From assembly GCA_934378195.1 (NCBI GenBank), contig CAKRPO010000005.1, positions 1-64,000 of the forward strand: a stretch of 64,000 nucleotides of DNA. Reading direction: 5' to 3'. The position numbers were made by a program, and so were the translations under genes. The notes beneath the pieces are model-generated. The model saw nothing but the letters and a program-made list of their open reading frames with translations. It did not search any database and was not told where the DNA came from. Origin of the DNA: an uncultured Blautia sp. (GTDB taxonomy: Bacteria > Bacillota > Clostridia > Lachnospirales > Lachnospiraceae). Of the stretch, positions 35,409 through 56,847 are shown piece after piece (position 1 is the stretch's first letter; each line of letters starts with the position of its first letter).

Positions 35409-35518
35409 CTATTTTTTATAAATTATCAGAAATTAATATAAAATACATAAAAATAATAGAATTAAAACAAAGATATAATATAATAATAAATTAATTTGAA
35501 AAATAATGTAAAAATGTA

Positions 35519-35547
35519 TTGACAAATAGTGCGGGCAGTGTTATTAT
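35519..35547 (+). promoter_or_regulatory. Strong promoter opening the non-coding region
   Basis: TTGACA at 35519-35524, 17 bases, TATTAT at 35542-35547 (with TATAAT overlapping at 35545-35550). No ORF of useful length follows for nearly 1 kb. Confidence 0.6.
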
Positions 35548-35553
35548 AATCCC

Positions 35554-36486
35554 ATCAAAAGAAAACAAGAAAAAATAAAAACAACAAACTAAACTAAAAA
35601 ATCATTCAATTCATAGCATATATAAATGTTACATGAAAAGGATGAAATCAAAGAAAGGTAAAGGTGATACCATTGGGAAAGTAGTCATTCATCTTCAATA
35701 TGAGAAGTGACAGAGATCAAGTTTCCTGCAAGAAAGACCTGATACATAAATTATCCATTATTTAAATCAGATTATCGAAATACATTCGGAAGAAAATATT
35801 AAATATATTACCTGGCGAACAGGACTTTCAGAAAAAGAATAATCTTTATAAACGTATTACAGGTATATAGAATTGATCACTCATATTGAATAACTGTCAC
35901 AGACCTGACACAAAGACTTTTGAATCTGTGTAAAGAAACATTTTCAAATATTGCGATCCATAAGACGTGAGTTATATGAATCAAAGCTTTGCTTCAGAAG
36001 AATATCTTCTCACAAAAGATATTAGTATAGAAATAACAGAAACCTTATTCCCGAAGAAAACAGTTTGAAATTTAAGAAGTTAAGTTTGGAGCTGCTCTAG
36101 TCTGACGGAAAAGATTTCAGAGATTATTTCAAGAAGAAATTATAATCCGTAAATTATAATTTCAACTCTATCAACTTTCTAAATGAACCGAATGATAAAC
36201 ATCATATCGTTTATGAGCAGGAAATTAAAGAGCTGTAACTGAAAAGACACAATAAAATATATAAAAACATAAAATAAAAACTAAATATAGAAGATTGAAT
36301 GAAGTATACTATAAGAGGTATCAGAGGATTTCAATCAGCAAACAAGACGAAAAGTTTTGAAAGAACAAAGAGGTAAATTAAAATTGAATATTGAAGATTG
36401 TTAAGACGGTCATCATTTCAGGATTATGAAAAATAGTTGTTAAGAGAAGTGATGACCGTCTTACTGTTGTGTAAAGAAGTTTTTTA
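35554..36486 (+). ncRNA. Candidate long structured non-coding RNA, about 900 nt
   Basis: There is no ORF over 60 codons on either strand from 35316 to 36550, and no ribosome site with a good start. The region is much richer in A and T than its neighbours. It is bounded by a good promoter and an 18-base hairpin (36402-36419 with 36446-36463), with a T6 run about 17 bases later. Inside are several perfect hairpins: 11-bp at 36136-36146/36153-36163, 8-bp at 36001-36008/36016-36023, 6-bp at 35898-35903/35925-35930 and 36195-36200/36209-36214, and GAA/CAAAG around 35978-35995. A conserved structured RNA is one reading; decayed genes are the other. It does not match a known riboswitch I recognise. 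Confidence 0.45.
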
Positions 36487-36552
36487 CGTTATACTCTCCA
36501 TAGAATGCAGACATGATATATACGATAGCTGCATAAAAGGAGAGCTTTTTTT
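36467..36552 (+). promoter_or_regulatory. Promoter and RBS-sequestering hairpin of the RluA gene
   Basis: TTGTGT (36467-36472), 17 bases, TATACT (36490-36495). CTCTCC (36494) can pair with GGAGAG (36539-36544), and ATGCAG (36505) with CTGCAT (36529). GGAGAG is the ribosome site of the pseudouridine synthase gene, and T7 follows directly. In read-through RNA from the non-coding unit this is at once a terminator and an RBS mask; RNA starting at the local promoter lacks the outer arm. Confidence 0.55.
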
Positions 36553-56578: not shown

Positions 56579-56847
56579 GTGTGCCCAGCAAAGCTGGGGC
56601 ACACCAATCGGTGTAAGTCCGATTATGGTAATCACCAGTGAGCCATATAGTCAAATCCGGTGCGTTGTAGTAATACAGGGTACTAAGCGGATGGGTAATG
56701 TAGCTTCATAAGAAGTGCTAACAATCATGCAGACCGCAACATAAAGTGAATCCTGCCGTATCGTAAATAAAACTTCTATGATCTCTCGGAATTCTGATTG
56801 ATCATGCCAGAGAAACTCTGGCTAGTGTAATGTCTCATTGACTTTCA

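What the first reader, a model, noticed from the sequence alone, without database searches (positions are those of the whole stretch)
35519..36486. Candidate 0.9-kb structured non-coding RNA between the hydratase and RluA genes
There are 1.2 kb with no ORF over 60 codons in any frame, a good promoter at the start, at least six perfect or near-perfect local hairpins (the best with 11-bp arms at 36136-36163) and an 18-base closing hairpin at 36402-36463. Very A-rich single-stranded stretches lie between. This is the size of the large structured RNAs (OLE, GOLLD, ROOL) but I cannot match it to them. Of all features here it is the best candidate for something undescribed.
Basis: partly seen in the sequence, partly recalled or inferred. 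Interest (0 to 1): 0.72.

Follow-up and report, generated by a model that had tools for sequence, protein, structure and literature searches.

The report
Large pseudoknotted RNA with ribosome-binding site
A stretch of DNA between two genes of a gut bacterium appears to make a long, elaborately folded RNA that matches no catalogued RNA family, is kept by many related bacteria, and carries a conserved landing site for the ribosome just before its knotted core.

Summary
The gap at 35519-36463 encodes a stand-alone, + strand structured RNA of about 0.9 kb. It matches nothing in Rfam and is not the tmRNA, RNase P or 6S RNA. It occurs in 59 of 64 genomes of its genus and at least 65 of 397 of its family, usually once. 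Copies share a TTGACA-N17-TATTAT-like promoter, a terminal hairpin, and a core whose helices covary: in 31 of 53 copies, 96.2% of cells pair, 20 of 28 pairs change on both sides, 0 of 500 shuffles as good. New here: a Shine-Dalgarno sequence and NTG start codon just before the core (103 of 105 copies; first base never C) open a micro-ORF, 3 codons in most Blautia copies, mostly 15 or more elsewhere, running in frame through the 5' strands of the pseudoknot. It is not a leader of rluA, which has its own promoter (34 of 41). I found no description in the papers searched. Likely role: a stand-alone RNA or RNP tied to ribosome loading. No expression data were available.

The parts
35519..35547 (+). 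Promoter: -35 TTGACA (35519-35524), N17, extended -10 TGTTATTAT (hexamer 35542-35547)
   Evidence: TTGACA upstream in 53 of 53 full copies of the genus set, with -10 boxes of varying fit, and a TTGAC[AT] promoter in 19 of 20 weak family hits
35553..36463 (+). Predicted transcript of the large structured RNA (start estimated from the conserved CATCAAAA after the -10; end at the terminal hairpin)
35652..35672 (+). Shine-Dalgarno / 16S-tail complement: AGAAAGG (35652-35658), AGGTGAT (35662-35668), CCA (35670-35672)
   Evidence: best duplex with the 16S 3' tail in 53 of 53 copies at this place;
35673..35684 (+). Micro-ORF TTG GGA AAG TAG (start codon, two codons, stop)
35695..35704 (+). Helix A, 5' strand (pairs with 35880-35889)
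35880..35889 (+). Helix A, 3' strand
35707..35713 (+). Helix B, 5' strand; pairs with 35894-35900 and crosses helix A (pseudoknot)
35894..35900 (+). Helix B, 3' strand
35715..35720 (+). Helix C, 5' strand (pairs with 35873-35878)
35873..35878 (+). Helix C, 3' strand
35721..35729 (+). Helix D, 5' strand, long range; pairs with 36217-36225 and crosses A and C
   Evidence: 470 of 476 cells paired but no covariation in the genus set
36217..36225 (+). Helix D, 3' strand
35731..35736 (+). Helix E, 5' strand AGAAAG; pairs with CTTTCT 36175-36180
   Evidence: 293 of 297 cells paired, no covariation; matching one-base deletions on both strands in L093 and L117
36175..36180 (+). Helix E, 3' strand
35737..35864 (+). 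Variable stem-loop V (58-318 nt among copies as measured)
   Evidence: its basal five pairs were not supported
35905..35997 (+). Helix G: 35905-35915 with 35987-35997, one invariant A-C mismatch, enclosing stem F (35918-35948, conserved GTGTRAAGAAAC loop)
   Evidence: 521 of 530 cells paired outside the mismatch; F
36136..36163 (+). Hairpin H1, 11 bp in the window
   Evidence: 21 branch-wise pair-keeping double changes against a null mean of 6.9
36186..36212 (+). Hairpin H2
   Evidence: 190 of 219 and 114 of 142 cells paired but no covariation beyond the null
36402..36463 (+). Terminal hairpin T, terminator-like; T-rich sequence follows in many copies (seven T in L104)
36467..36495 (+). Separate promoter of rluA: TTGTGT, N17, TATACT (bounds the RNA unit; not part of the RNA)
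   Evidence: 34 of 41 rluA-flanked copies against 7.6% of shuffles

Best explanation
The gap encodes an independently transcribed structured RNA of about 0.9 kb, a new class spread through the family of Blautia (Lachnospiraceae). Shown by sequence comparison: a promoter of its own; a terminal hairpin; a core in which helices A, C and V nest, B crosses A, and D and E reach 440-490 nt downstream and cross A and C; further helices G, F, H1, H2. Also shown: a conserved Shine-Dalgarno sequence and start codon just 5' of the core, opening a micro-ORF. Inferred: 30S subunits load there. In most copies from outside Blautia the ribosome would read through the 5' strands of A and B and into C; in most Blautia copies it would stop three codons in, close to helix A. 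Ribosome traffic would therefore decide when, or whether, the pseudoknotted core closes. The closed RNA then acts by itself or as an RNP, in the manner of large stand-alone RNAs such as OLE, ROOL and GOLLD, and not as a leader of the next gene. Which molecule the core acts on is unknown.
For: Structure: in 31 of the 53 full copies (those with a short stem V) 96.2% of 850 cells pair, 20 of 28 pairs change on both sides, 0 of 500 shuffles as good, slid versions 26-46%. In 38 copies, 22 of them from outside the genus, 98.7% of 607 cells in helices A and B. On the tree of 53, pair-keeping double changes against null means: B 15 against 1.3, C 17 against 3.6, T 14 against 3.2. Stand-alone unit: TTGACA in 53 of 53 and a promoter in 19 of 20 weak hits; rluA has its own promoter (34 of 41); the RNA keeps its parts where rluA is not the next gene (L101 YgjP-like, L107 Na/Pi cotransporter) and where it lies tail to tail with rluA (L012/L070). 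Ribosome site: the best duplex with the 16S tail is at the same place in 53 of 53 (11 of them average -20.3 kcal/mol against -13.7 +/- 2.0 in 55 shuffles) and upstream of helix A in 48 of 52 other copies; the tail was read from 8 of 16 genomes. First base of NTG: T 58, G 23, A 22, C 0 of 103, with C at 16% locally. Of 50 other copies with the anchor, 38 stay open 13 codons or more, and 36 of these 38 reach helix A in frame, 24, 27 or 30 nt on, against 7 of 12 short ones.
Against: No transcript, ribosome binding or phenotype was seen; all of this is comparative. The peptide is not conserved and is only 3 codons in 44 of 53 Blautia-set copies. My unbiased all-pairs covariation scan, of my own making, called only one pair significant, on two alignments. 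D, E and H2 show no base covariation beyond the null, and the basal pairs of V only 54% pairing. The anchor search forces the letters TG, so only the first base of the start codon is tested. Copies are related, so counts are not independent events.
Confidence: 0.55

Rival explanations
1. A stand-alone scaffold, RNP or RNA-only particle like OLE, ROOL or GOLLD, in which the micro-ORF is incidental or merely protects the 5' end.
For: Size, pseudoknots, own promoter and terminal hairpin, usually one copy per genome.
Against: Shine-Dalgarno and start codon are found in 103 of 105 copies, and outside Blautia the frame is kept, although the peptide is not conserved; an incidental ORF does not explain this.
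Confidence: 0.25
2. A 30S or anti-Shine-Dalgarno sequestering RNA: the 5' motif is complementary to nearly the whole single-stranded 16S tail and holds 30S subunits in a non-productive complex beside the pseudoknot, as a translation brake.
For: In the genus set both halves of the 16-nt tail are matched in the common form (AGAAAGG and AGGTGAT..CC), best site in 53 of 53; a very early stop in most Blautia copies.
Against: Outside Blautia the motif is mostly an ordinary AAGGAGG-like sequence with normal spacing and the ORF mostly stays open.
Confidence: 0.12
3. A giant cis-acting leader (riboswitch or attenuator) of rluA.
For: In at least 41 of 53 genus-set copies the RNA lies just upstream of and codirectional with rluA, and it ends in a terminator-like hairpin.
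Against: rluA has its own promoter behind the hairpin in 34 of 41; the RNA persists with other downstream genes and in tail-to-tail orientation.
Confidence: 0.04
4. A base-pairing regulatory RNA whose invariant single-stranded segments pair with mRNAs.
For: Long A-rich unpaired linkers; conserved loops such as GTGTRAAGAAAC.
Against: The conserved segment CTTTGCATCAG, which looked single-stranded, proved to be one side of helix G. mRNA targets were not searched for.
Confidence: 0.04

Closest known systems
OLE RNA
   Same: Large stand-alone structured RNA of Gram-positive bacteria with highly conserved stretches (abstract start in the listing); that OLE could sequester ribosomal protein RpsU is a hypothesis named in a passage of PMC12286853; that RpsU sits near the anti-Shine-Dalgarno region is recalled
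   Different: No Rfam match even at permissive thresholds; here a conserved ribosome-binding site and micro-ORF. OLE's helices were not compared one by one
ROOL and GOLLD RNAs
   Same: Size class; multiple pseudoknots, stated for ROOL in PMC12286853 (passages)
   Different: Those are phage and prophage RNAs often near tRNA islands; this one is chromosomal and mostly syntenic, no tRNA in the window, no hit in viral contigs with three patterns
tmRNA
   Same: Pseudoknots together with a short reading frame in one RNA (recalled)
   Different: The genuine tmRNA is present separately in 6 of 6 genomes; ARAGORN finds no tRNA or tmRNA in the window; translation here would start at a Shine-Dalgarno sequence
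rpsO-type 30S-entrapping mRNA pseudoknots
   Same: A pseudoknot beside a ribosome-binding site can trap 30S subunits (recalled; papers seen only in the listing)
   Different: Those control the following protein gene (recalled); here there is no protein gene, and the pseudoknot lies 3' of the start codon within a 0.9-kb RNA
smtA motif (Soda Lake RNA)
   Same: A large structured RNA of unknown function (section 14 of PMC11109978)
   Different: Found exclusively in Thioalkalivibrio and over 350 nt; found by a screen of GC-rich gaps, whereas this RNA averages 31% GC in a window of 33-48% per kb, the lowest bin being this gap

Membership tests
OLE / ROOL / GOLLD (Rfam families) | Covariance-model match | tested here: not met
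   No match at gathering score in the window, nor at permissive E-values in the region or in 28 loci with relatives (8, 20)
ROOL / GOLLD | Carried by phages or prophages, often near tRNA islands | tested here: not met
   No tRNA in the window; 0 hits in viral contigs for 3 exact patterns; only a 32-base A-rich match in 2 phages; chromosomal locus, mostly syntenic
OLE / ROOL / GOLLD | Forms RNA homo-oligomers | not testable with these tools
   Needs cryo-EM or native gels; the AAGCTT palindrome in helix G is in 40 of 53 only
tmRNA, RNase P RNA, 6S RNA | It would be the genome's missing copy of that RNA | tested here: not met
   Each is found elsewhere in 6 of 6 genomes (6S over cut-off in 5 of 6)
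cis-regulatory leader or riboswitch of rluA | Same transcript as, and fixed association with, the regulated gene | tested here: not met
   Separate rluA promoter in 34 of 41; other neighbours; tail-to-tail copy
Structured RNA | Compensatory base changes | tested here: met
   against: only 1 pair significant in my all-pairs scans
Translated small ORF | Shine-Dalgarno sequence, start codon and reading frame conserved | tested here: met
   a complement of 6 nt or more upstream of NTG in 51 of 53 and 44 of 50 against 9% of random positions. The frame test applies outside Blautia only
Translated small ORF | Conserved peptide or ribosome footprints | tested here: inconclusive
   Peptide only 3 codons in 44 of 53; elsewhere often a QYESG-like stretch that the RNA helices may explain; footprints not available

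The most novel reading that the evidence does not exclude
A ribosome-gated RNA machine: a giant stand-alone RNA whose 5' core strands are at the same time the coding sequence of a micro-ORF, so that translation initiation or termination on it sets the fold, and the fold reports on or acts on the translation state of the cell. I know of no large RNA class that works this way.
Probability: 0.3. Interest if true: 0.92.

Novelty: new variant of a known kind. Interest (0 to 1): 0.85.

Why it matters
Large structured RNAs of bacteria with unknown function are few, and their roles are an open question. This one sits on the chromosomes of gut Lachnospiraceae, has a fold defined well enough to test, and carries a clue to mechanism: a conserved ribosome-landing site feeding into a pseudoknot. 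Being AU-rich, it is of the kind that screens of GC-rich gaps would pass over (inference from how those screens are described).

Tried and rejected
Decayed gene: thought unlikely (no ORF over 43 aa, compensatory changes); no protein-level search of the gap was run. An earlier reading of the ORF from the upstream GTG (6 codons) was dropped because its start or frame breaks in many copies; the NTG nine bases further on keeps its place. Homodimer palindrome AAGCTT: 40 of 53 only, and it overlaps helix G. A hairpin of TTCC with GGAA around the start codon: judged by eye to break in the TTGAAA variants; not counted. The all-pairs G-test scan with a tree-based null, written by me, gave one significant pair (35720-35873) on two alignments; I take this as low power, but it counts against a stronger claim. 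In one search helix A looked unpaired (35.5%, 0 pair-keeping double changes) because the A-B spacer varies; re-anchoring on TCAA and TTGA gave 526 of 530, of which the four anchor pairs are fixed and 314 of 318 are free. Basal pairs of V (35737-35741 with 35860-35864) gave 54% and no covariation; the five pairs above them gave 92.9% in 31 copies. Rows dropped: L069 (5' end missing) from all full-length counts; 22 of 53 copies with a longer stem V from alignment A2; L173, L175, L181 (too long), L176 (left out by choice), L182, L184 and L185 from A3; L182, L184 and L185 from the counts; 2 copies without the NTG anchor from the 103. The class-wide hit in G642 (L185) looked coding and lacked a promoter: judged spurious. 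Literature: listings showed no description of this RNA; word searches for Blautia and Lachnospir in the main texts of PMC8040213, PMC11109978, PMC12286853 and PMC8632094 gave 0. Subscription papers and supplements were not searched.

Full report
What is there. The window gap between an aconitase-family gene (ends 35315; Pfam) and rluA (36553) holds no ORF over 60 codons. It has a TTGACA-N17-TATTAT promoter with an extended -10 at 35519-35547 and an 18-bp closing stem at 36402-36463. The + strand is far more stable than its shuffles (z -5.85, 0 of 20). The - strand is equally so, hence orientation rests on the promoter, the terminator and the wobble bias: 240 G-U against 49 A-C cells over nine helices, with H1 alone undecided at 21 against 22. 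Rfam 15 has no match at gathering score in the window other than a group II intron far away, and only matches far below gathering scores at E up to 10 in the region.

Relatives. The RluA protein fetched 55 genome loci, and 26 of 55 have a blastn match to the gap at E 0.01. Record titles place the closest in Blautia. A covariance model of the 3' domain (R1) finds one copy in 53 of 64 genomes of that genus; a model of the 5' core (R2) finds 6 of the 11 misses, making 59 of 64. In 397 family genomes the counts are 2 with R1, 30 with R2 (both at E 0.01) and 65 with the broader R3 (E 0.001). Only 6-9 candidates per genome were scored there, so these are lower bounds. Class-wide (391 genomes, R2) there were 3 matches: G001, G091, which is a family handle, and G642, which I judge spurious. 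Order-wide (295, R3) there were 10, all with handles drawn in the genus or family searches, so I infer that the class is confined to this family. One genome (G146) has two copies. Twenty of the weaker R3 matches were fetched; 19 of 20 have a TTGAC[AT] promoter upstream. Of the 20 loci scanned, 18 come from outside the genus search; none matches an Rfam family at its gathering score.

Architecture. Fifty-three full copies (the window and 52 others) span 783-1161 bases from TTGACA to the end of the terminal hairpin, at 27-38% GC (the L104 length there is cut arbitrarily, and its hairpin, followed by seven T, is seen). The core has a definite order: A B C D E V C' A' B' G F G' H1 E' H2 D' T. A-A', C-C' and V nest. 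B-B' crosses A-A'. D-D' and E-E' reach 440-490 nt downstream and cross A and C. So the core contains at least two pseudoknots if D and E are accepted, and one (A with B) on covariation alone.

Covariation. On 31 of the 53 copies, chosen for a short V, 28 pairs of A, B, C and V: 96.2% of 850 cells pair, 20 pairs change on both sides, 0 of 500 shuffles reach any of the five measures, and sliding by 1-3 columns gives 26-46%. On 38 sequences, 22 of them from outside the genus, A and B pair in 98.7% of 607 cells, with 12 of 16 pairs changed on both sides. On the tree of the 53, pair-keeping double changes against null means of all double changes are: B 15 against 1.3, C 17 against 3.6, H1 21 against 6.9, T 14 against 3.2, F2 6 against 1.4, F1 20 against 13.2. 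Helix A pairs in 526 of 530 cells after anchoring, 314 of 318 not counting anchor pairs. Helix G pairs in 521 of 530 with one invariant A-C mismatch. D (470 of 476) and E (293 of 297) are almost invariant and show no compensatory change in the genus set, but in L093 and L117 both strands of E have lost one base together. H2 and the basal pairs of V show none beyond the null. My own all-pairs scan with a tree-based null gave only one significant pair, so the case rests on named helices.

A transcription unit of its own. In 34 of 41 copies followed by rluA there is a second promoter (TTG..., N16-18, -10) between the terminal hairpin and rluA, against 7.6% of shuffles. rluA is the neighbour in at least 42 of the 53; in L070/L012 it is tail to tail with the RNA. 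Elsewhere the next gene is a YgjP-like (L101) or Na/Pi-cotransporter (L107) gene. Among 35 further loci (one of them the spurious L185), rluA is seen within the fetched flank in 16 and the aconitase gene in 14. Promoter and core persist without that neighbourhood, so the RNA is not a leader of rluA. RNase P RNA, tmRNA and 6S RNA are all found elsewhere in 6 of 6 genomes, 6S over its cut-off in 5.

The ribosome site. Just 5' of helix A lies, in the common forms, AGAAAGG-n-AGGTGAT-n-CC in Blautia and AAGGAGG-N5-TCCA elsewhere. The 3' end of 16S rRNA, matched in 8 of 16 genomes searched, is GGATCACCTCCTTTCTA. In 53 of 53 copies the strongest duplex with that tail in the whole RNA is at this place (-13.3 to -21.2 kcal/mol; 11 copies average -20.3 against -13.7 +/- 2.0 for 55 shuffles). 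In 48 of 52 other copies the best site is likewise upstream of A. Right after it comes NTG, in 103 of 105 copies. The search forces TG, but the first base is free: T 58, G 23, A 22, C 0, with C at 16% locally. A complement of 6 nt or more lies within 20 nt upstream in 51 of 53 and 44 of 50, against 9% of random positions.

The micro-ORF. In the Blautia set it stops at the fourth codon in 44 of 53. In the 50 other copies (5 of them from the genus, all short) it is open for 13 codons or more in 38, against 21 and 9 in the other frames. Of those 38, 36 reach helix A in frame, 24, 27 or 30 nt on, while short ones do so in 7 of 12 and Blautia short ones in 28 of 52. The peptide itself is not conserved except for a QYESG-like stretch that helices A and B may dictate. 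An earlier frame starting at the upstream GTG was tested and dropped.

How it probably works. Established knowledge (recalled): a strong Shine-Dalgarno sequence about 9 nt before NTG loads 30S subunits. Inference: a ribosome on this ORF covers or melts the 5' strands of A, B and C, so the core can only close when ribosomes are absent or have terminated. The RNA would thus be a stand-alone machine coupled to translation. I hold the RNA class itself at about 0.97, the start site being a genuine initiation site at about 0.8, and the coupling at about 0.5. What the closed core does is open.

Novelty. Rfam 15 and the paper searches (listings; passages; one section) gave no description. Large structured RNAs are a known kind; one with a conserved ribosome-loading site whose coding strand is the pseudoknot strand is, as far as I could check, new.

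Noticed in passing
window 56605-56744: Rfam group-II-D1D4-4 intron match on the + strand (E 2.6e-16)
   Followed up: no
L055:254-418: Clostridiales-1 RNA (Rfam) some 2.6 kb from the copy of the new RNA in the same locus
   Followed up: no
L080, L084, L085, L089, L091, L105, L106: Stem V is expanded to 255-318 nt with strong predicted structure (-49.5 to -61.2 kcal/mol); in L003, the same genome as L091, model R2 matches twice side by side
   Followed up: no
G146 (L166 and L221): The only genome seen with two copies of the RNA, each with a promoter upstream
   Followed up: partly
window 35603-35648: A possible 5' hairpin (TCATTCAATTCAT ... ATGAAAAGGATGA) conserved in many but not all of the copies aligned
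   Followed up: no
window 35420-35518: The A-rich stretch upstream of the promoter also matches among Blautia copies, perhaps an UP element
   Followed up: no
helix G, window 35910 and 35992: An A-C mismatch is invariant in 53 of 53 copies; on the other strand it would be a G-U pair
   Followed up: partly
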